IMG/VR virus record: IMGVR_UViG_3300032293_001694
Coordinates: 1 to 33,114 of that record
DNA: 33,114 bases
Direction: 5' to 3' (one strand)
Source: a virus
Shown here: one piece after another, positions 6,982 to 28,911 of the stretch
Numbering within the stretch: position 1 is the stretch's first letter
How the letters are laid out: each line of letters begins with the position of its first letter
The notes under the pieces: generated by a model
Database searches by the model: none
The model's input: the letters and a program-made list of their open reading frames with translations, nothing else
What the model was told of the DNA's origin: nothing
Made by a program: the position numbers and the translations under genes

Positions 6982-7995
6982 ATGTACGATGTTTATTTTA
7001 CCACAGGAATAGGTAAAATCAGTACGGGAGTAGATATTTGGGTAAACAACTGGTTGAGTGAAGTAAGTAAAGACTTAAGCACTCATCCAGTTTTACTTAT
7101 TTATAGAACTAAACCAACTGATTTTAATTTTGATATACCAATCGAACACTATTGGTATAATGATGAAACCGGAAATCACAGAGATATTTTTGAAGAAAAG
7201 TTTAGGGAGTGTAGGAGAGTTAATATATTACATGCTCACTACACTCCTTTGGAATTAATAGAAGAGAATAAAGATAAGATACATTCCTATATAATCCACA
7301 ATTGTTTAGATAAAGTTGTAGTAGAAACTGGGATAAGTGATTTACCATTTGGTTGGACTCCTTATTATTCTCAAAAGTGGGAAAGTGAAATACTATCATA
7401 TGCTAAAAACAAAGTATGGATAGGGTTGTATGAATTAAAAGGAGATAAGTTTGAAGGAGCAGTTAATATCCCATCGTATTATGAATTCACTCATAATAAA
7501 GAGTTATCTGATTCAAACTTTATAGGATTTACTGCGAGATGTGAGAGTAGAAAGAACCCACATTATTTAGACCAATTGGGAGGATTTATGTTTACTAATA
7601 TAAGAACCTTTCAGAAGACTTGGAAGCATACAACTGATATAAACTTTAAGAACTTAAAACAAATTCAATATGAAAGCCCATTTGAAGAAATATATTATGG
7701 TATGGATTGGGGTGTATCTCATTGTGCATTTTCTGCTGAGCCATTTGGGTTCTCCATATTTCAAAGTTTAGATTGGGGAAAACTACCGATTATATCAAAA
7801 GATTGGTGTAAGGATATACCTTATAAATTTAGAGCTGGTACTAAAGAAGAATTTAAAGATATTTATGATAGTATTGGGTATCTTACATATAAAGAGAAAA
7901 AAGAGGAGTTTGATAAATTTAAATATTTATTAGCACAACGTTTTGATACCAAACAAAATTGGAAGGAACAATTAACAAACTTATATAATGCCTAG
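6982..7995 (+). CDS. GT-B-fold (GT4-like) glycosyltransferase
   Basis: A 337-residue protein starting one base after the fibre stop codon. It reads like a two-lobed GT-B enzyme: an N-terminal lobe with the ILHAHYTP stretch (H84, H86), as in GT4 enzymes; a second-lobe start at GFTARCESRKN (residues 182-192), where GT4 members carry a phosphate-binding Arg and Lys; and EPFGFSIFQ at 253-261, matching the E-x7-E donor site with the second Glu changed to Gln. It has no signal peptide or membrane segment, so it is probably cytoplasmic. Its place between two surface-exposed virion proteins suggests it glycosylates one of them, but it could equally modify a host glycan or phage DNA. The last 8 bases overlap the next gene. 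The fold is fairly sure; donor and acceptor are unknown. Confidence 0.72.
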   Translation: MYDVYFTTGIGKISTGVDIWVNNWLSEVSKDLSTHPVLLIYRTKPTDFNFDIPIEHYWYNDETGNHRDIFEEKFRECRRVNILHAHYTPLELIEENKDKIHSYIIHNCLDKVVVETGISDLPFGWTPYYSQKWESEILSYAKNKVWIGLYELKGDKFEGAVNIPSYYEFTHNKELSDSNFIGFTARCESRKNPHYLDQLGGFMFTNIRTFQKTWKHTTDINFKNLKQIQYESPFEEIYYGMDWGVSHCAFSAEPFGFSIFQSLDWGKLPIISKDWCKDIPYKFRAGTKEEFKDIYDSIGYLTYKEKKEEFDKFKYLLAQRFDTKQNWKEQLTNLYNA

Positions 7996-9286
7996 AGTTC
8001 AGGGAGACAATTTAGAATTATCGAATTTAAAAGCAGCAACGGGTAATACGGCTACTTCTAACTACTCCATTGCTACTGCGGCAGGAACAACTACCGGTCC
8101 AATTGCATTTTCGGATTTCACAATAGATGCGGTGGGTTCAACTATATCAGGATTCACATATGTAAAGGAATCAACTGCGGAAACATTTAATATGAACTTT
8201 ACAAATGCGGGAACGCGTTTTTTAAGTAGGGTTGGTTCTCAATATAATAATTTCACATGGAGTTTATCAGTAGGAGCAGAGTTTACAATTCAATCTCTTC
8301 CTCCTTATAATCCATCTGTAACTGCGGCGGCGGTAGGTAATTCATCTACATTAGCTGCGCCAACTGCTAGAACCTTAACTGCAACATTTAGAGACCTTTA
8401 TAACGACCAGGCATCTAACTATAACGTAGCTATGACAAAAACCATTTACAATGTAGATGATTATGCTGGAGCTAGTGGATTATGTTTGCATTTAGATGAG
8501 ATGATTGAGATGTGGGATGGTACATTTAAGAAAGCAGGTGATTTAGTAGAAGAGGATGTTGTAAAAGCATATTTCCCTCCACATTTTCAACAAGTGGATG
8601 ATTTCAATTTTTATGATTGGGAATATTATACACCAGGAGGAATATTAGTTCCTGCTTATGTAAAAGATGTTGCATATACATTCGTAGATAGATGGAATAT
8701 AGTACGAACTACAAAGGGTGATGTTAGAGGAAATGGTGAACATCCTATGATGATATTTGATATAAACGAAGAAGTTTATAAATTCAAACCATTAGGATTA
8801 CTTCAACCTGGAGACAGATTAATAAAAGTATTGGGTGAGAACGAAATAGAGGAAGTAGAGATAATTGCGAATGAGGTACAATCATCCACATTAGAGGTTG
8901 TATCGATAGATGTTGAAGATGTGGATACATACATAGTAAATGGATTCGTTACCCACAATAAGGGTGCAAACTCTTTAGCGGGGTATTCTATATCAACCAA
9001 CCCAACTATATCAATTGCGGCGGCAACTATTGGAGGAGATGCATATAAGGCTTTAACTCTAAGTACCAATTCTGCGGTAGTATCTCCTGGTTCAACTGCG
9101 ATTACTGCAAACTATTCATATGATATACAAATAGCATCTGATAGTGGATTTGCAACTATATTAGCAACTTTCACTGCATATAGTTCTAATACTTTAAATT
9201 ATAAAACTGGGGCTACTATCTTTGCAAGAGCTAAAACAAATTTTGCAGGATTACAAAGTGGGTTCGGTTCAACTGCAACGGGATAA
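7988..9286 (+). CDS. Beta-rich virion/adhesin protein interrupted by a Hint (intein-like) domain
   Basis: A 432-residue protein overlapping the glycosyltransferase gene by 8 bases. Residues 1-165 are Ser/Thr/Ala-rich beta structure typical of phage decoration or fibre proteins. Residues 166-324 are a Hint domain, and 325-432 return to Ser/Thr/Ala-rich, Ig- or Fn3-like beta sequence. The two flanks resemble each other in composition, as expected of one structural protein split by the insert. Its place after the fibre and before the sheath suggests a tail or collar component, but I do not recognise the flanks. If the Hint domain cleaves or splices, the mature virion would carry processed products. 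Confidence 0.7.
   Translation: MPRVQGDNLELSNLKAATGNTATSNYSIATAAGTTTGPIAFSDFTIDAVGSTISGFTYVKESTAETFNMNFTNAGTRFLSRVGSQYNNFTWSLSVGAEFTIQSLPPYNPSVTAAAVGNSSTLAAPTARTLTATFRDLYNDQASNYNVAMTKTIYNVDDYAGASGLCLHLDEMIEMWDGTFKKAGDLVEEDVVKAYFPPHFQQVDDFNFYDWEYYTPGGILVPAYVKDVAYTFVDRWNIVRTTKGDVRGNGEHPMMIFDINEEVYKFKPLGLLQPGDRLIKVLGENEIEEVEIIANEVQSSTLEVVSIDVEDVDTYIVNGFVTHNKGANSLAGYSISTNPTISIAAATIGGDAYKALTLSTNSAVVSPGSTAITANYSYDIQIASDSGFATILATFTAYSSNTLNYKTGATIFARAKTNFAGLQSGFGSTATG
8483..8959 (+). other. Hint / bacterial intein-like domain (159 residues, no homing endonuclease)
   Basis: The block A-like start is Cys166 (CLHLDEMIEMWDGTF, then DLVEEDVV). A block B-like His (H252) lies in GNGEHPMM, where the usual TxxH reads NxxH. 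Blocks F and G are represented by DVDTYIVNGFVTHN, ending His323-Asn324. All residues for the N-S shift and Asn cyclisation are therefore present, but the +1 residue is Lys325 instead of Cys, Ser or Thr. This is the hallmark of bacterial intein-like (BIL) domains, which tend to cleave more than splice. There is no LAGLIDADG or HNH endonuclease; an extra acidic and aromatic segment (~195-230) sits between blocks A and B. Confidence 0.8.
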
Positions 9287-21440: not shown

Positions 21441-22217
21441 ATGTTCAAACATCTTACAGATTTAGAAGTCCAACAAATTACGTTTGATTGGCGATACAGA
21501 GGGTTTACAACCTTAGAATTACTTACCGAAGAAGAGTGTGATGAAATAAATGATGAGTTGGAAAGACTTCGTCAAGAGAGAAAGGGAACACTTACTCCAG
21601 ATGGTAAAGAGTGGGGAGAGTGGGACCCGTTTTCATACCCACATAAAATCTCAGAAAAAATAGAGAAACTTTTTGTTCACCCAAAGATTATCGAAGCGTG
21701 TTCGTACCTTATGGGTGGTGAAATTGTTGGTATGCAGACATGGTGTTACTTCAAACCACCTGGACAATTAGGTAGAGATATGCACCAAAATGCATTTTAT
21801 ACAGGATGTGGTCACAATGAGATTATCAATACTGCATTGGCATTAGATAATCACGATGCCGGTAACGGAGCAGTATGGAATTACGAAGGTTCACATAGAT
21901 TACCTACATTACCTATTGAGGTGGACGAGGAAAGAGCTAAAACTAATCCTAACTTTTGGAGAAACGAAAGAGGTAAACCTTGTATTATGCCAGAAGGACA
22001 CGATTTCCGTAAGGTAGAAGGAGTTCTTAAAAAGGGACAGGTAGTTCTACTTCACTCACATTGTGTGCATGGTTCAGAGGCAAATGATTCAAATAGATTC
22101 CGTAGAAATCTATTAGGAGGATACCTTAAAAGGGGAGCATACTTCAATCAGGGTTCACATATGAAGAGAGAACCAATTGAATTGCAACCTTTACAAGAAA
22201 AATATTGGAATTCTTAA
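21441..22217 (+). CDS. PhyH-like Fe(II)/2-oxoglutarate oxygenase with altered metal triad
   Basis: 258 residues of the phytanoyl-CoA dioxygenase type: GFTTLELLTEEECDEINDEL near the start, then YFKPPGQLGRDMHQ with the metal-site His at 115, GNGAVWNYEGSHRLP, and a distal HSHCVHGSEAND (H210) followed by R-x-RRN for 2-oxoglutarate. Relatives normally read H-Q-D-N; here it is H-Q-N-A, so the Asp of the HxD...H triad is Asn117. The enzyme may have weak, altered or no oxygenase chemistry. Viral relatives are implicated in modifying small molecules, nucleic acids or surface structures; no substrate can be read here. It has its own promoter and ends just before the polymerase gene. Confidence 0.8.
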   Translation: MFKHLTDLEVQQITFDWRYRGFTTLELLTEEECDEINDELERLRQERKGTLTPDGKEWGEWDPFSYPHKISEKIEKLFVHPKIIEACSYLMGGEIVGMQTWCYFKPPGQLGRDMHQNAFYTGCGHNEIINTALALDNHDAGNGAVWNYEGSHRLPTLPIEVDEERAKTNPNFWRNERGKPCIMPEGHDFRKVEGVLKKGQVVLLHSHCVHGSEANDSNRFRRNLLGGYLKRGAYFNQGSHMKREPIELQPLQEKYWNS

Positions 22218-22235
22218 AAATTTTTCGTATATTTG
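22205..22235 (+). promoter_or_regulatory. Bacteroidota-type promoter for DNA polymerase gene
   Basis: TTG (22205-22207), 20 bp, then a perfect TAnnTTTG (TATATTTG, 22228-22235). The -33 box lies inside the oxygenase coding sequence. The polymerase ATG (22242) is only 7 bases past the -7 box, so the transcript may have almost no leader. Confidence 0.8.
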
Positions 22236-22241
22236 TTTTCT

Positions 22242-23480
22242 ATGGTTTACTATGTAGAGAATAAAGATATCGCGATAAAGTTTATGGATGAATACACATC
22301 CAAAGACTCTGTTATATTCCCGCTATTCAAAAATAGAACAGAACACCCCATAGTCAATAAACTATTGGGTGTTTTTGTGTTTATAGGAGAACATTGTTGG
22401 GTGATAATGGAAGACCACAATGATTGTGTTCCGGTTAGTTTATCCATATTGGAGAGAAGTGATAGGGTTAAGTATATCTTTGATACTAAATGGTTCTTGC
22501 ATAAAACCAAAATTACAAATTGGAAAAGTGTAGATGTTTCATACCACTTAATGGAGTTTAAATCCTATGCGTATGATATGATATACCAATCTTTTACCAA
22601 CGGATATAGGGATAAAAGTGATATCTCATTCATTCCAATTGCAACTATTCTAAAAGGAGTTGTGGAGTTTGTTGTGGAGAACGCTAAGTACGCTAGAATC
22701 GATTCAAATGGTTTTGATAGATACAATGATTATACAATTCCATCGTTCCTTAGAATCGAAGCAAATGGTATTCCTACCACATATGGATATGAGTATTCTC
22801 TTTACAATAATTTTACCACAACAGGAAGACCTTCGAACACATTTGGAGGAGTAAATTATTCGGCTCTTAAGAAATCGGATGGTAGTAGAGATTTCATTGT
22901 TAGTAAGAATGGAGAATTGGTTCAATATGATTTTGATGGATATCACATCCGATTGATTGCAAAATTAATAGGAGAGCCGATGCCGGAAGGTTCTGCACAT
23001 GAATGGTTGGGAAGGCAATACTTTGGTAAGGATGAACTAACAGAAGAGGATTACTCTAATAGTAAAAAGATTACCTTCCAACAATTGTATGGTGGGATAG
23101 ATGTTCACAATTTGGAAATACCATTCTTTCAAAAAACAAATGATTTTATAACCAAACTGTACAAACAATTTATAGTTAATGGATTTGTTGAGACACGATT
23201 TGGGAAAAGGATACCATTTACTAAGATAGATAACCACAATGCTCAGAAGGTATTTAACTATTATTTACAGGCATTAGAAACAGAACAGAACGTTTTGTTG
23301 ATAACTCAGTTGAATATATTGTTGGAAAATTACAATACAAAATTGGTTCTTTATACATACGATTCGTTTTTATTTGATGTGGATTCGAATGAAATTGAAC
23401 TCTTATCCAAAATAGAGGAAGTTTTACATAGAATATCTCCTACAAAGGTAGATAAAAATTATAGTTACGGTAATATTTAG
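22242..23480 (+). CDS. Family A DNA polymerase, polymerase domain only
   Basis: 412 residues from ATG 22242; an in-frame TTG at 22233 is part of the promoter -7 box, so it is not the start. Before motif A runs TTTGRPSNTFGGVNYSALKK, DGSRDFIV. Motif A is DFDGYHIRLIAKL (D230), motif B KKITFQQLYGG (K275, F279, Y283), motif C LVLYTYDSFLFDV (D374). Both metal-binding Asp are kept, but the usual motif A Glu (steric gate) is His235 and the motif C HDE reads YDS. There are no exonuclease motifs: the first ~150 residues may be a decayed exonuclease-like domain. It is much shorter than Pol I (~930 residues) and is reminiscent of the split polymerase of Rhodothermus phage RM378, whose exonuclease is a separate gene. 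It is the probable replicative polymerase. Confidence 0.85.
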   Translation: MVYYVENKDIAIKFMDEYTSKDSVIFPLFKNRTEHPIVNKLLGVFVFIGEHCWVIMEDHNDCVPVSLSILERSDRVKYIFDTKWFLHKTKITNWKSVDVSYHLMEFKSYAYDMIYQSFTNGYRDKSDISFIPIATILKGVVEFVVENAKYARIDSNGFDRYNDYTIPSFLRIEANGIPTTYGYEYSLYNNFTTTGRPSNTFGGVNYSALKKSDGSRDFIVSKNGELVQYDFDGYHIRLIAKLIGEPMPEGSAHEWLGRQYFGKDELTEEDYSNSKKITFQQLYGGIDVHNLEIPFFQKTNDFITKLYKQFIVNGFVETRFGKRIPFTKIDNHNAQKVFNYYLQALETEQNVLLITQLNILLENYNTKLVLYTYDSFLFDVDSNEIELLSKIEEVLHRISPTKVDKNYSYGNI

Positions 23481-23484
23481 TATT

Positions 23485-24249
23485 ATGGATGCGATATCAG
23501 AATATAAAACGAACGGATTCCACTTTGGAACATTTGATGAAATTTTTACTAAAGAAGAAATTCAATTAATAAAGTTAGGATTTCAAAATATAAAATCTGC
23601 ATTTTCAAATGGAGATAATATTATTTGCAAAACTCAACATACCGGAGACCATCGATATCCATTTTACGATGGTGTAGAGACGTATAATCATCCTTATAAT
23701 GATATTAGTTTGATTGACGGATATATGAAAGAAAACAATTATACTTTATTCCAAAGATGGAAGCAATTAGATAATTGTGCAAACTATGAATTGAAACCCC
23801 AGCTAGAAGAGATATTCAGTAAAAACAAATATAATATCTTAGCCAAATTTTATCCAGAATTCACCTTTTTGAATGATGATATTAACATTGGAGGAGCAGG
23901 TACAATAGGGGTGTATGAAAAAGGAGATAAACAACCTCCTCATTTTGATGCAGGGAGTGAGAGAACTATATTTGGTATATTATATTATTTAACGGATGAA
24001 ACTGATTGGGATGAAGAAAGCGGTGGCGAATTTCTTATAAACTCAAATGGACTTAAAATATCCCCTACTTTTGGAAAATATGTAGTACTTGATTTTGTGG
24101 ACAATCTTTTAGAACATGAAGTGTTGGAATTAAAAAAAGACTATAGGAGATATATGGTCATATCATTCCCATCTGTAATAGATAATGGAAGTGAAAGAGT
24201 TAATAAATTTTTGGAAAAAAAGAGGAATTCGAATGTGTTTACAAGGTAA
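23485..24249 (+). CDS. Fe(II)/2-oxoglutarate oxygenase, prolyl-4-hydroxylase type
   Basis: 254 residues with an intact triad: H153-F-D155 in PPHFDAGSERTIFGILYYL, distal H211 in LLEHEVLE, and the 2-oxoglutarate Arg at 221/222 in DYRRYMVISF. Between them lies the ESGGEFLI strand and PTFGKYVVLDF, as in P4H-like enzymes. It starts 5 bases after the polymerase stop, so the two are co-transcribed. It is a different subfamily from the PhyH-like gene on the other side of the polymerase. Family members hydroxylate proteins, nucleic acids or small molecules; the substrate here is unknown. No signal peptide was seen. Confidence 0.82.
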   Translation: MDAISEYKTNGFHFGTFDEIFTKEEIQLIKLGFQNIKSAFSNGDNIICKTQHTGDHRYPFYDGVETYNHPYNDISLIDGYMKENNYTLFQRWKQLDNCANYELKPQLEEIFSKNKYNILAKFYPEFTFLNDDINIGGAGTIGVYEKGDKQPPHFDAGSERTIFGILYYLTDETDWDEESGGEFLINSNGLKISPTFGKYVVLDFVDNLLEHEVLELKKDYRRYMVISFPSVIDNGSERVNKFLEKKRNSNVFTR

Positions 24250-24323
24250 ATTGGTGACAAAAATCATACTAAGCAAAATATTTAATACTTATATAGGATA
24301 AAAAGTATAAAATAAATCGTTAG

Positions 24324-24719
24324 ATGAAAACACAGTTACTATGCACCTTTACTGATAAAGAAGTTTTGCAAGATGTATTACAGCAAATTAGAGAAAATTA
24401 TAAAATAGTATATAACTACATTTATATTCTACAGAATAAAACAAGCTTAGATGAGTTGTATATTACATATAATATTGATGTGGAATTTAGACCTAATAAG
24501 CAGTTACCTAATACCATATTAGTACATAGAAAGAAACAATCGAACACCCTATATACAATCAATGCTTTGAACCAACTAATTAAAGAGGAAAACGGAGGAG
24601 TATTGGATACCTCATTCTCTTTAGATTGGGATAAATTTAGAAATTGTATTATATTGACGGGTTTACAAGGAATTAGAAAAGTTCCTACAAGAATTTTTGA
24701 AAAGATAGAATTTAATTAA
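24324..24719 (+). CDS. Conserved-looking phage protein, unknown function (131 residues)
   Basis: The protein begins MKTQLLCTFTDKEVLQDVLQ and has an alpha/beta look, with a notable NTILVHRKKQSNTLYTINAL stretch and an end IRKVPTRIFEKIEF. I associate this pattern with small phage proteins near large structural genes but cannot assign a role. It sits after a 74-base gap in which only a weak promoter-like sequence is seen (TTG 24251, AATATTTA 24277; spacing too long), and five bases before the 1395-residue gene, so both are probably one unit. Confidence 0.7.
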   Translation: MKTQLLCTFTDKEVLQDVLQQIRENYKIVYNYIYILQNKTSLDELYITYNIDVEFRPNKQLPNTILVHRKKQSNTLYTINALNQLIKEENGGVLDTSFSLDWDKFRNCIILTGLQGIRKVPTRIFEKIEFN

Positions 24720-24723
24720 TCTT

Positions 24724-27700
24724 ATGGCAGATATTAAGAATATCATAAATGAGCTTTTATTAGAATTATCTGTAACCTATCCATTTCCTAATATGAAGGA
24801 TAGAGAGCAGGTTTTTGCTCTATTAGATATATGTGAGGAATTAGGATATGATTATCTTAAACCTCAATTAGAAGAGATGTTTCTAAATGAAGCAGAGGGA
24901 GAAGGAGAATCTAAATTATTTCCAGGTAAGTTTCACTTAGGAGGAGGGTTCTATTCATCTAAAAATGGTGGAGAAGCTGAACTTAAAAATGAAAAAGGAA
25001 ATCTTAGACCGGTAACTCCTGAAGAAAAAGCTAAATTTGATGCAAAGAGTGGTAAGGGTGAAGAACCTAAGCCTACCGATGAGCCTAAAAAAGACGAACC
25101 AACCGTAGAAAAACCGGCTGATAAACCTGACGAAAAACCAGAAACTCCAACCGGAGATAAACCTTCAGCGGAACAACCTGAAAAACCTGCCCCACCTCAA
25201 GCAAATCCAGAAGTAGAGAAAGTTAAGAAAGATGCAAAGGAAGACCCACAAAAAGTATTGAGTGACCCAAACGCTACTGCACAAAGTAAAGCTATGGCTA
25301 GAGCGTTTAAGGCACAGAAAGATACCGATAGTGCGGATACCGAAAATAGCCCTACTGAGGGTGATATAAAAACTAAAAGTGAGACGGTATCAAAGGGATT
25401 AAAAAATAGAAAAAGTAAAGGTGGTGAAGATTTAGATGTAGAAACTACTGAAAATGGTTCATTGATTATTGGAGTTGAACATGGAAAACGAAAGAAAAGT
25501 AATAAACAAACAATAGAACAAATAAAAACTTTACCTAAAGATACAAAAGTAATGTTTGTAGGTGAGGGTGGTATGAGTAAAGATGATAATGGTAATATTG
25601 AATTTGCCGGAGAACAAAATGAAATTAGAAATGCAGTAAAAGGACACTTTGATAGTGCAGAAGAAAGTAGTTGGGATGAAAACGCAGATGTATTGGATGA
25701 TAAATCACCTGTTTTTGATGAAGTAGCGAAATCGGTAGGTGGTAGTAAATCAAAAGCAAAAGCAGCCATATGGTCAAATATGTATGGACAAGATGGTCCT
25801 GATGAAAATATGACACCTGAAGATTATTTAGATGATGAAGGTAAGGAATGGTTAATAGACCAAGCAAAAAAAGGTGGAAGTTCGGAATTTGATGGTGATG
25901 TTGATTGGAATAACCTAACTGATGCACAACAAAAAGACCTTTATGAATTAAATTTTAGAGATGATGATGGATATGGTGAAACTGAAATATTTAAAGCTCA
26001 AGAAGCATACAACGGATTTCGTCAAAAAGAATTAGATAGAAAAATAAAAGAGGCAGAAGATGCTGGATACACAGTAATTGCACCGGTTGGAAACTCTCAC
26101 GTTGATATGTGGAGAAAAAGAAATAAAAAAAATGAATTCAAACCTGTAGAAGCAGATGAAGTATCAAACGAAATGCCTGATGCAGATAAAGAGATATTCA
26201 ATTCAAATGCGGAAGCACTTAGTGGATTACAACCTGCACAATTAGAACAATTCAATACTGATATAGACAAAGTTGCTAAGATGATTTCTGATGCGGAAGC
26301 TAAAGGCGAACCTGCACCGGATATTAATTTATGTGATATTACTATTCCTGGAACTAACTTATATTGTGATGATAATAAGGGAATACCTAGAGAAGAAATG
26401 CCTCAATTCAAAGGAAAGGCAGTAGAAGGTAGTAGAGCAGCGGGTATGGAAACTGACAAGGATGGGGAAGTAGATACAGAGCCTATATTCAGAGAAATGC
26501 TTAAGCAGAAGAACGTTAAAGTATTACAAACTAAAGTACCTGCAGATAAATTAAAAGCAACTCAAAAAGATTTAGTAGGTGGTAAGGTAATTGGTATGAT
26601 GGGAGCGTTGGAAAAAGACCCTACCAATCCAAAGATTACTGCACCAATATATGTGAGTAGAGATGGATATGTAATCGATGGACACCATAGATGGGCTGCA
26701 ATTGTAGCGTATAATGCTAAACATCCAGATGCACCGATTGAAATGAAATCAACGGTAATCGATATGGATATTAAAGATGCGATTCCAATGGCGAATAAGT
26801 TTGCGGAAGATATGGGAATTGCAGCTAAGAAAGCGGATGTTAAAGATGGGGAAGCACCAAAGGAAGAACCAAAAGTAACGGATGATAAAGTTGGAGCTAA
26901 GGCAACTACTAGTGGTGGAAAGAAATTATATCATATAGGAAATGGATATTACTCCGATTCACCTAATGGAGATGCTAAATATATTAGAGTAGAATCGGTT
27001 GTTAAAAACGCAATTGAAATTGATACCAAAAAATGGTGGAGATTATTATTTGAAGAAAATGTTAAAGCAACTGTAGATGGTGGAGAAGAAGGAGTATTTA
27101 AAGAAATTCCAAAAGATGATGTAGAAATAGCAACCGATGCTGCTAAGCAAGATGGTGATAGTTCTAATTCAACTGTAACACCTGTCGATGGAAATTGGGA
27201 AGAAAAAGCAATAAACCAATTGACTCAACCTAAATATGATAATTCAATCTTAGATGATAATCTTAAAAAATCGATTGCGGTTATTATAGGAAAAATGACA
27301 GCAGGTCAGGATTTAACGGATGAAGAAAAGCAAATTGCAAAGGATTACATAAAAATTGTTCAGTCCGGTGGAAAGGTTAAACTTTACGTTGCTGCTAAAA
27401 AGAAAGGAGATTGGCCACAAGGAGGATATGTTAAAGTAGAATTAGGGACGGGTAACTCTAAGAAAAAATGGGCAGATGAAGCAGCGGGAAAATATGATAT
27501 AACATCAGGGGCTTCATCACAGGGTGTGTTTGGTAAAAAACAAAATTCACCTGCAAAAACAAACCCAAAGCGAAAGAAAGCTAAAATAGAAGTCATTGAT
27601 GATAATACCATTATGTTCAATGGACAGAAAATGGAGAAATTACCAGTAATGACATTTGATGAGATAAAGGCTCAAATTAAATCGGAGAATCCTGGATTAA

Positions 27701-28911
27701 CAGATAAGGAATTAAGTAAAAAAGCAGCTATATTAGAAAAAAGAATCAGAAGATATAATGATAATATAGATGTATTTAAAGAAATTGCAGAAGATGGTGG
27801 AGGCGAATTTGAATATGTTGATTATGGTGATGTAGATACACCTGAAAATAGAGGAAAGGCTATACAAAATATGGCTAGTATATCTCTTGAATTTTTTAAA
27901 GAAAAATTAGGTGATAAAGCTGATTTACCTGAAAATAAATTAGTATTAGATTCATTAGAATCATTAAAAAAGTTTGAAGGTATTAATTTAGAAACGGATG
28001 AGGCGGCTAGAAAAGAGTATGAACAAATTTTATCGGATATAATTGTTCATATGACTAATAGTAAAGATTTCAGAGATGGTGTAGCTGATTTTGCGGAACA
28101 AAAAGTAGCAATGGAATTATTAGGTAAGGGATACCCTACCTATCTACCTTCGGATGAAGCGTTTAAAACCGCAGATGTGTTGGTGGCAAATCCAGCTGAG
28201 CTAAGTGATTTATCTGAAAAATCAAAATCACTACAATTACTTTATGTAACCTTAGAATTTTCAGGAGGTATAAGTGTTAAATATCAAGGCGGTGGAGCAG
28301 GTAATAGTGATGAAAAAGTAAAAAAGACTAGATTTAAAAATAACGAAACTAGAAAAAGAGTAAATGGGATGTTGGGTACATACGATACGATGTATCCTAA
28401 TGATAGAACTCCTCCTAATTTCCCACCTTCTCAGGAAAAATTAGATGAGTTAAATGCTACACATGAAGATAATAAAAAATGGGCTATTGAAAATGGTGTA
28501 GCTACTGAAGAAGAGCTTGCTAAAGCAGATGAATGGGCTGATAAGAGAATTGAAGCAGTATTTAAAACATTTTCTGCAAATGGAGTTGGGGATTGTATGA
28601 GTGATGACGAGAAGAATAGATTTAAAGAAAATATGAGAGCTTATTATAAAAACCAAAAATTAATGGAGGTTATCTATAATAATGATGCAGATTATACAAT
28701 GTTTGGTAATAGTAATCAAAAAATAAAAGTAAGTAAAGGTAAGGCAGTGGCAAATGAATCTGATACAGCTGATGGTGTTGAGGAGATTTGTTATATGAAA
28801 ATAAAAGATGATGTTGGATTTAATTATTCTAAACAAGGAGATTGTACTGTTGTAAAACCTTCAAACAGAAACCCATCTGAAATTCATTCTCATAAACCTT
28901 CTATAAAATAA
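24724..28911 (+). CDS. Very large multi-domain phage protein with ParB/sulfiredoxin-like motif
   Basis: 1395 residues. N-terminus (1-60): LLLELSVTYPFPNMKDREQV plus an acidic helix; ~66-80 FHLGGGFYSS; ~115-215 a Pro/Glu/Lys-rich linker; ~246-460 a domain with LIIGVEHGKRK, VMFVGEGG and a late VIAPVGNSHVDMW, loosely recalling TraB/ChaN-type spacing; ~535-575 CDITIPGTNLYCDDNKGIPR; ~590-700 a ParB-like domain with VSRDGYVIDGHHRWAAIVAY (D652, H654, H655, R656), the likely nucleotide-binding or catalytic site; ~733-757 a second LYHIGNGYYSDS motif; ~960-1395 a helical, unrecognised C-terminal part. It could be a virion-carried or capsid-associated polyprotein, possibly injected with the DNA. Only the ParB-like motif is a confident call; composition matches the neighbours. 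Confidence 0.75.
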   Translation: MADIKNIINELLLELSVTYPFPNMKDREQVFALLDICEELGYDYLKPQLEEMFLNEAEGEGESKLFPGKFHLGGGFYSSKNGGEAELKNEKGNLRPVTPEEKAKFDAKSGKGEEPKPTDEPKKDEPTVEKPADKPDEKPETPTGDKPSAEQPEKPAPPQANPEVEKVKKDAKEDPQKVLSDPNATAQSKAMARAFKAQKDTDSADTENSPTEGDIKTKSETVSKGLKNRKSKGGEDLDVETTENGSLIIGVEHGKRKKSNKQTIEQIKTLPKDTKVMFVGEGGMSKDDNGNIEFAGEQNEIRNAVKGHFDSAEESSWDENADVLDDKSPVFDEVAKSVGGSKSKAKAAIWSNMYGQDGPDENMTPEDYLDDEGKEWLIDQAKKGGSSEFDGDVDWNNLTDAQQKDLYELNFRDDDGYGETEIFKAQEAYNGFRQKELDRKIKEAEDAGYTVIAPVGNSHVDMWRKRNKKNEFKPVEADEVSNEMPDADKEIFNSNAEALSGLQPAQLEQFNTDIDKVAKMISDAEAKGEPAPDINLCDITIPGTNLYCDDNKGIPREEMPQFKGKAVEGSRAAGMETDKDGEVDTEPIFREMLKQKNVKVLQTKVPADKLKATQKDLVGGKVIGMMGALEKDPTNPKITAPIYVSRDGYVIDGHHRWAAIVAYNAKHPDAPIEMKSTVIDMDIKDAIPMANKFAEDMGIAAKKADVKDGEAPKEEPKVTDDKVGAKATTSGGKKLYHIGNGYYSDSPNGDAKYIRVESVVKNAIEIDTKKWWRLLFEENVKATVDGGEEGVFKEIPKDDVEIATDAAKQDGDSSNSTVTPVDGNWEEKAINQLTQPKYDNSILDDNLKKSIAVIIGKMTAGQDLTDEEKQIAKDYIKIVQSGGKVKLYVAAKKKGDWPQGGYVKVELGTGNSKKKWADEAAGKYDITSGASSQGVFGKKQNSPAKTNPKRKKAKIEVIDDNTIMFNGQKMEKLPVMTFDEIKAQIKSENPGLTDKELSKKAAILEKRIRRYNDNIDVFKEIAEDGGGEFEYVDYGDVDTPENRGKAIQNMASISLEFFKEKLGDKADLPENKLVLDSLESLKKFEGINLETDEAARKEYEQILSDIIVHMTNSKDFRDGVADFAEQKVAMELLGKGYPTYLPSDEAFKTADVLVANPAELSDLSEKSKSLQLLYVTLEFSGGISVKYQGGGAGNSDEKVKKTRFKNNETRKRVNGMLGTYDTMYPNDRTPPNFPPSQEKLDELNATHEDNKKWAIENGVATEEELAKADEWADKRIEAVFKTFSANGVGDCMSDDEKNRFKENMRAYYKNQKLMEVIYNNDADYTMFGNSNQKIKVSKGKAVANESDTADGVEEICYMKIKDDVGFNYSKQGDCTVVKPSNRNPSEIHSHKPSIK

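What the first reader, a model, noticed from the sequence alone, without database searches (positions are those of the whole stretch)
24724..28911. 1395-residue mosaic protein: repeated LYHIGNGYY-type motif, ParB-like motif and an unassigned GVEHG/GEGG/GNSH domain
Seen: FHLGGGFYSS (~66) and LYHIGNGYYSDS (~735) bracket the middle of the protein; DGHHR (652-656) is a ParB/sulfiredoxin-like core; residues ~246-460 place GVEHG, VGEGG and VGNSHVDMW in an order like TraB/ChaN-type enzymes. Inference: a multi-enzyme virion-carried or early protein whose active sites are linked by a Pro/Glu-rich tether. No single known phage role explains all parts.
Basis: partly seen in the sequence, partly recalled or inferred. 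Interest (0 to 1): 0.7.

Follow-up and report, generated by a model that had tools for sequence, protein, structure and literature searches.

The report
Phage cargo polyprotein with swappable enzymes
A T4-like phage of an aquatic, Bacteroidetes-phage-like lineage encodes one long protein that looks like a string of interchangeable enzymes, probably loaded into the virus head, cut apart by the head protease and injected with the DNA; it extends a known class of injected phage proteins with a new enzyme domain and a new-looking way of processing.

Summary
It is a mosaic of independently exchanged modules: leader (1-56), short tag, Pro/Glu/Lys linker, a TraB/ChaN/Ere-superfamily-like domain (222-470; GxxH, E, R and GxxH invariant in 40 homologues; model pLDDT 90), a ParB/Srx-like DGHHR domain (475-712), a second leader-like unit (735-777), and a C-terminal domain (850-1395; no known fold found, invariant E...D...SVK suggests a PD-(D/E)XK nuclease). 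Relatives whose flanking genes are 95-100% identical carry TraB-like or C-terminal alleles only 25-32% identical; more distant phages share the TraB-like module at 75-90%. The 'repeated motif' is two related elements, each at a fixed distance from an (L/I)-x-E sequence, the known cleavage motif of T4 prohead protease gp21. Relatives encode gp21 and gp23, and several modules exist as separate leader-bearing genes. Best reading: a head-packaged, prohead-protease-processed polyprotein of injected effectors, a new variant of 'polyvalent proteins' and T4 Alt/IP cargo. Module exchange is shown; the folds of two modules are supported; packaging, cleavage and all enzyme activities are inferred.

The parts
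24724..28911 (+). mosaic cargo ORF, 1395 aa
   Evidence: 37 homologous loci
24724..24891 (+). leader 1, residues 1-56, ending LNE
   Evidence: conserved N-terminus of the baseplate-locus mosaics; 95-96% identical in L013/L017
24883..24894 (+). putative gp21 site 1: L54-N55-E56|A57
   Evidence: (L/I)xE 11-26 aa before HLGGG[FY]YS in 33 distinct contexts; T4 gp21 motif from PMC9026906
24892..25038 (+). post-cleavage tag 1 (residues 57-105, FPGKFHLGGGFYSS...GNLRPVTPEEK)
   Evidence: second copy inside L003, L006, L009/L010, L012
25036..25386 (+). Pro/Glu/Lys-rich linker, residues 105-221
25387..26133 (+). TraB/ChaN/Ere-superfamily-like domain, residues 222-470; H253, E281, R433, H459 invariant
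26146..26859 (+). ParB/Srx-like domain, residues 475-712, D652-G-H-H-R656
26926..27054 (+). internal unit 2: LYHIGNGYYSDS...WWRLLFE, residues 735-777
27046..27057 (+). putative gp21 site 2: L775-F776-E777|E778
   Evidence: [LI]FE at this place in 35 of 37 distinct contexts (others LFN, LFK; read by eye)
27055..27159 (+). post-cleavage tag 2, residues 778-812 (ENVKATVDGGEEGVFKEIPKDDVEIATDAA...)
   Evidence: conserved after the LFE site
27271..28908 (+). C-terminal domain, residues 850-1395; candidate PD-(D/E)XK nuclease, E1125, D1151, S1184-V-K1186 invariant
24324..24719 (+). 131-aa syntenic gene directly upstream, probably co-transcribed; TACTTATA at 24286

Best explanation
The gene encodes a cargo polyprotein of the phage head. 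An N-terminal leader (1-56) targets it into the prohead core, as capsid-targeting propeptides do in T4. On maturation the T4-like prohead protease gp21 cuts after L-x-E at E56|A57 and E777|E778, giving a leader peptide, a product with TraB/ChaN/Ere-like and ParB/Srx-like domains (57-777), and a C-terminal product (778-1395) that may be a PD-(D/E)XK-type nuclease. The products leave with the DNA and act early in the cell (likely on host or rival nucleic acid or on nucleotides, and through a hydrolase whose substrate is unknown). Leaders, sites and tags act as joints at which modules are exchanged between phages. Shown: ORF, conservation, module exchange, predicted fold of the TraB-like domain, gp21/gp23 in relatives. 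Inferred: packaging, cleavage, injection, activities.
For: Module exchange: L017 and L037 have flanking genes 95-100% identical to the window but TraB-like 31% and C-term 25%; L013 TraB-like 97% but C-term 25%; L001 C-term 84% but ParB 57%; L024 TraB-like 90% with SSB 59%; module order is swapped (PARB before TRAB) in 27 of the distinct proteins. Processing units: five other tag types have (L/I)xE within 40 aa upstream in 44 of 44 distinct contexts, at near-fixed distances, against 8-30% at random places; the YYSD-type unit has an LxE downstream in 36 of 36 (null 38%). T4 gp21 motif is L/I-X-E (PMC9026906) and gp21 trims Alt and IPI-III (PMC9958956). PF03420 gp21 in 8 of 13 and PF07068 gp23 in 10 of 13 related records; their gp23 has LLDE|A or LLSE|A at the expected place. 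Separate genes: C-term L129 with its own leader ending SLCE, TraB-like L086/L088 (leader ending ILKD), ParB-TraB L082 with leader LLKE. The TraB-like module also sits in a head-operon mosaic upstream of TerL. A ParB homologue lies inside 'structural protein 5' of phage Epa33. TraB-like fold: model pLDDT 90, pTM 0.86; EreC first in Foldseek; H253-E281 spacing 28 equals EreC H50-E78, and R433 and H459 parallel R261 and H289.
Against: No proteomics: packaging and cleavage are untested. L-x-E is short, so sites occur by chance (also inside the TraB-like domain, IKE near 441). Two of 37 contexts have LFN or LFK at site 2; L086/L088 leaders end in LKD; immuto gp23 has IVSE. Contexts are related, so the counts are not independent. 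The window is a fragment without head genes. TraB-like structural matches are weak (Foldseek E 0.74; VIA Z 8.3 over 182 residues, rmsd 5.7). The C-terminal model found no fold match. No metalloprotease module in this copy.
Confidence: 0.62

Rival explanations
1. A polyvalent protein injected whole: it is packaged and injected as one chain, the L-x-E sequences are incidental, and the enzymes act while tethered.
For: N4 virion RNA polymerase and some plasmid polyvalent proteins are transferred uncut (PMC5512222); P1 DarB carries an N-terminal capsid-targeting signal (PMC9024508).
Against: L-x-E recurs at fixed distances from the tags in unrelated modules, and modules also exist as separate leader-bearing genes.
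Confidence: 0.2
2. A baseplate- or tail-associated multi-enzyme protein (cell-entry device), since the gene lies downstream of the baseplate genes.
For: Gene order sheath, tube, hub, tape measure, baseplate, then this gene.
Against: Between it and the baseplate genes lie oxygenase-like and polymerase genes, and SSB and UvsX follow; the same TraB-like module sits in a head-operon mosaic in L026-type phages; T4-like alt genes also lie by baseplate genes yet encode a head protein (PMC5512222); no lysozyme or peptidoglycan domain found.
Confidence: 0.08
3. A non-virion early or middle protein made in the cell after infection (host takeover or counter-defence); leaders and L-x-E are unrelated to gp21.
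For: Its neighbours SSB, UvsX and exonuclease are replication genes; small stand-alone ParB-like relatives occur in Aeromonas phage 65 and Vibrio phage Bakedbeans outside head operons.
Against: Same leader and L-x-E design in head-operon genes between TerL and gp23; a one-mismatch copy of a putative promoter element shared with sheath and tube genes lies upstream.
Confidence: 0.1

Closest known systems
Polyvalent proteins of phages and conjugative elements (Iyer et al. 2017, PMC5512222)
   Same: One polypeptide with disparate enzyme domains, ParB/Srx-like domain, near virion genes, strong mosaicism; relatives add HExxH-like and nucleotidyltransferase modules.
   Different: No TraB-like domain is mentioned in that paper's main text; its proposed processing is by an embedded zincin peptidase, here by the head protease at L-x-E; this copy has no zincin.
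T4 Alt and internal proteins IPI-IPIII (capsid-targeting sequence plus gp21 cleavage)
   Same: Short leader ending in L/I-x-E, T4-like gp21 and gp23 in relatives; alt-like genomic position near baseplate genes.
   Different: T4 proteins are single-cargo with one leader; here several modules with repeated internal leader-like units in one chain.
Phage P1 DarA/DdrB/DarB and SPN3US ejection proteins
   Same: Large head-packaged antirestriction or ejection proteins; several trimmed by a prohead protease (SPN3US, PMC10052503) or thought to be processed (P1 DarA, PMC9024508).
   Different: Apart from the protease itself, the reported SPN3US substrates lose N-terminal propeptides only; no cassette exchange with tags described there.
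Tiki/TraB/ChaN/EreA enzymes (PF01963, PF04187, EreC)
   Same: GxxH ... E ... R ... GxxH order and H-E spacing of 28 as in EreC.
   Different: About 8% identity to EreC in the structural alignment; G, not E, three residues before the first His; substrate unknown.

Membership tests
Polyvalent proteins | several domains of disparate activity in one polypeptide | tested here: met
   TraB-like, ParB/Srx-like and a third domain in one ORF; the activities themselves were not tested
Polyvalent proteins | phage gene in the vicinity of late/virion genes | tested here: met
   downstream of sheath, tube, tape measure, baseplate
Polyvalent proteins | injected with the DNA | not testable with these tools
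   needs virion proteomics
Head-packaged cargo processed by T4-like gp21 | leader ending in L/I-x-E | tested here: met
   LNE at 54-56, LFE at 775-777
Head-packaged cargo processed by T4-like gp21 | gp21 and gp23 in the same phage lineage | tested here: met
   in relatives, not in the window itself:
Head-packaged cargo processed by T4-like gp21 | cleaved in the prohead | not testable with these tools
   no proteomic data
Tiki/TraB/ChaN/EreA superfamily | GxxH, Glu and second GxxH motifs in order, invariant | tested here: met
Tiki/TraB/ChaN/EreA superfamily | shared fold / significant profile match | tested here: inconclusive
   EreC rank 1 in Foldseek but E 0.74; VIA Z 8.3 to a Tetrahymena complex IV chain, probably the TraB-family subunit of PMC10060162, chain identity not verified; Pfam TraB 0.048, ChaN 0.03, not significant
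ParB/sulfiredoxin superfamily | active-site DGHHR-type motif | tested here: met
   invariant in 22 sequences; the weak PDB hits, 1vk1 and the free serine kinases, centre on it
ParB/sulfiredoxin superfamily | significant profile match | tested here: inconclusive
   ParBc_2 best E 0.064; phrog_2859, unnamed, E 7e-19
PD-(D/E)XK nucleases | core fold and E...D...(E/D/S)xK | tested here: inconclusive
   E1125, D1151, S1184, K1186 invariant in 21 sequences whose identity to the window goes down to 21%; one member weakly hits PDDEXK_11 (0.068); no fold match

The most novel reading that the evidence does not exclude
A DNA-phage counterpart of RNA-virus polyproteins: one late gene strings several injected enzymes together, each preceded by its own leader, L-x-E site and tag, and the head protease releases them inside the capsid, while the repeated joints let phages swap effectors like cassettes. 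A TraB/ChaN/Ere-type hydrolase would be a new kind of injected phage effector.
Probability: 0.5. Interest if true: 0.8.

Novelty: new variant of a known kind. Interest (0 to 1): 0.6.

Why it matters
If true, it shows how a T4-like phage can load and release many different enzymes with one kind of targeting signal, gives a simple sequence rule (leader, L-x-E, tag) for finding many uncharacterised injected proteins in aquatic phages, and adds a TraB/ChaN/Ere-type enzyme to the list of early phage weapons.

Tried and rejected
Whole-protein Pfam (nothing) and PADLOC (nothing). PDB profile searches for TraB-like and C-term modules (only chance-level hits). Fold search of the C-terminal model in PDB and BFVD (no confident match), so no fold is claimed. 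TraB-like module in 84,980 bacterial and archaeal genomes: 111 pattern matches, no homologue by tblastn, so a recent bacterial source is not seen. Simple tandem repetition of the LYHIGNGYY motif: rejected, BLAST finds no internal repeats; the two motifs have different positions relative to L-x-E. T4-type late promoter TATAAATA on the coding strand: not enriched. Literature search for TraB with phage virions: nothing relevant.

Full report
Observation. Pfam finds nothing in the whole protein; PHROGs finds only phrog_2859, unnamed, at residues 534-704 (E 7e-19).

Setting. The window is a 33-kb virus record, probably a fragment, with T4-like genes: sheath, tube, hub and tape measure upstream; SSB, UvsX and exonuclease downstream. 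By sheath, the nearest cultured phages include Microcystis phage Mel-JY01 and Flavobacterium phage immuto. Immuto has the same order (family-A polymerase fragment, 131-aa family gene, SSB, recombinase, exonuclease), with only a 172-aa protein, gp003, where the mosaic lies here. The host of the window is not known; signal peptides in related records look Bacteroidetes-like (inference).

Relatives and modules. Four IMG/VR scans gave about 200 loci. Profiles of three modules show architectures TRAB-PARB-CTERM (20), PARB-TRAB (16), TRAB-PARB (11), PARB-TRAB-CTERM (10), PARB-CTERM (5) and single modules. Identity by module and by flanking gene shows exchange directly: L017 and L037, with flanking genes 95-100% identical to the window, carry TraB-like alleles of 31% and C-terminal alleles of 25%; L013 differs only from unit 2 on; L001 has a near-identical C-terminus (84%) with diverged ParB (57%); L024 has TraB-like 90% with SSB 59%. 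The modules are under purifying selection. Of 19 records searched, 16 hold exactly one TraB-like module, either in the baseplate-locus mosaic, in a second mosaic upstream of TerL in the head operon, or elsewhere.

Processing units. The HLGGG[FY]YSS element follows an (L/I)xE by 11-26 residues in 33 distinct contexts (the remaining 27 of the 60 matches have none upstream and are mostly the other type); other mosaics use different tags, also just after (L/I)xE, in 44 of 44 contexts against 8-30% at random places. The YYSD element precedes an [LI]FE by about 40 residues in 35 of 37 contexts, the two others having LFN and LFK. Contexts are related by descent, so these are not independent trials; the argument rests on near-fixed spacing across unrelated tags and modules. 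T4 gp21 cuts after L/I-X-E (PMC9026906) and trims Alt, IPI-III and gp23 (PMC9958956). Relatives encode gp21 (8 of 13 records) and gp23 (10 of 13), and their gp23 carries LLDE|A or LLSE|A (LISE|A in Mel-JY01) some 20-25 residues before the conserved GVALPLVR stretch. Some modules also occur as separate genes with a leader: C-terminal domain in L129 and L121, ParB-TraB in L082, TraB-like alone in L086 and L088 (leader ending LKD).

TraB-like domain. The 40-sequence alignment keeps GxxH (250-253), GEGG (280-283), E297, N430, R433 and GxxH (456-459). The model is confident (pLDDT 90.1, pTM 0.86). Foldseek's first hit is erythromycin esterase EreC, though at E 0.74; VIA-align's best three rows are one Tetrahymena complex IV chain (Z 8.3, 182 aligned, rmsd 5.7), and that complex is reported to contain a TraB-family subunit (PMC10060162; that the chain is this subunit was not verified). 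Pfam TraB and ChaN are among the weak hits of members. EreC's catalytic H50, E78, R261 and H289 (PMC7979712) are matched in order by H253, E281, R433 and H459, with the same H-E spacing of 28.

ParB/Srx-like domain. DGHHRWAA is invariant; weak PDB hits centred on it are 1vk1 and free serine kinases; Pfam ParBc_2 is a weak hit. The nearest annotated homologues are in giant virion proteins of F116-like phages (Epa33 structural protein 5) and in small stand-alone proteins of Aeromonas phage 65 and Vibrio phage Bakedbeans. ParB-like domains in comparable proteins are DNases or nucleotidases (PMC5512222).

C-terminal domain. Model pLDDT 85, pTM 0.78, no fold match. E1125, D1151 and S1184-V-K1186 are invariant although identity to the window falls to 21%, a pattern seen in PD-(D/E)XK nucleases (from general knowledge). 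I give this assignment about 0.4.

Judgement. Module exchange 0.97; TraB/ChaN/Ere superfamily 0.85; ParB/Srx superfamily 0.8; head packaging with gp21 processing about 0.62; nuclease at the C-terminus 0.4. The kind (injected multi-enzyme phage protein) is known; the TraB-like domain, the head-protease joints between modules and the cassette exchange make it a new variant.

Noticed in passing
9487, 9800, 12190, 12778, 13804, 21412, 29927, 30328 (+ strand): TATTTATA: 8 of 9 exact copies lie in the 1322 intergenic bases, just upstream of sheath, tube, hub and other genes; also upstream-biased in several relatives and in immuto. Candidate phage promoter element; a one-mismatch copy (TACTTATA, 24286) precedes the 131-aa gene and the mosaic.
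   Followed up: partly
L081:7960-7990, L084:1195-1215, L085:7960-7990, L095:7960-7990: ParB-like frame ends at GAAAAAAAAAAG followed by TAA or TAG; the TraB-like domain continues in the -1 frame, while L082 and L096 are fused in frame at the same A10G run. Possible programmed -1 frameshift or transcriptional slippage; assembly error or internal restart not excluded.
   Followed up: partly
L026:5847-11855 and similar L020, L023, L027, L028, L034: Head-operon mosaics upstream of TerL combine a cytidylyltransferase-like domain (PF01467, 1e-7), the TraB-like module, an HExxH-like motif (LHEITHQIL) and a ligase-like EKTDG motif, with L/IxE between parts.
   Followed up: partly
records behind L104, L082, L013 and 16 others: 16 of 19 records have exactly one TraB-like module, never two, although two carrier genes exist.
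   Followed up: no
7988-9286: ORF with a Hint/intein-like stretch (SGLCLHLDE ... NGFVTHNKG) in a structural-gene context.
   Followed up: no
21441-22217 and 23485-24249: Two putative 2OG-Fe(II) oxygenase-like genes flank a family-A polymerase fragment (22233-23480) between baseplate and cargo genes.
   Followed up: no
L024, L006, L026 and others: about 150-aa module (GSGVKNFFSG...GGLAHG.AAFGKH...): A shuffled module with long hydrophobic helices recurs in many mosaics but is absent from the window copy.
   Followed up: no
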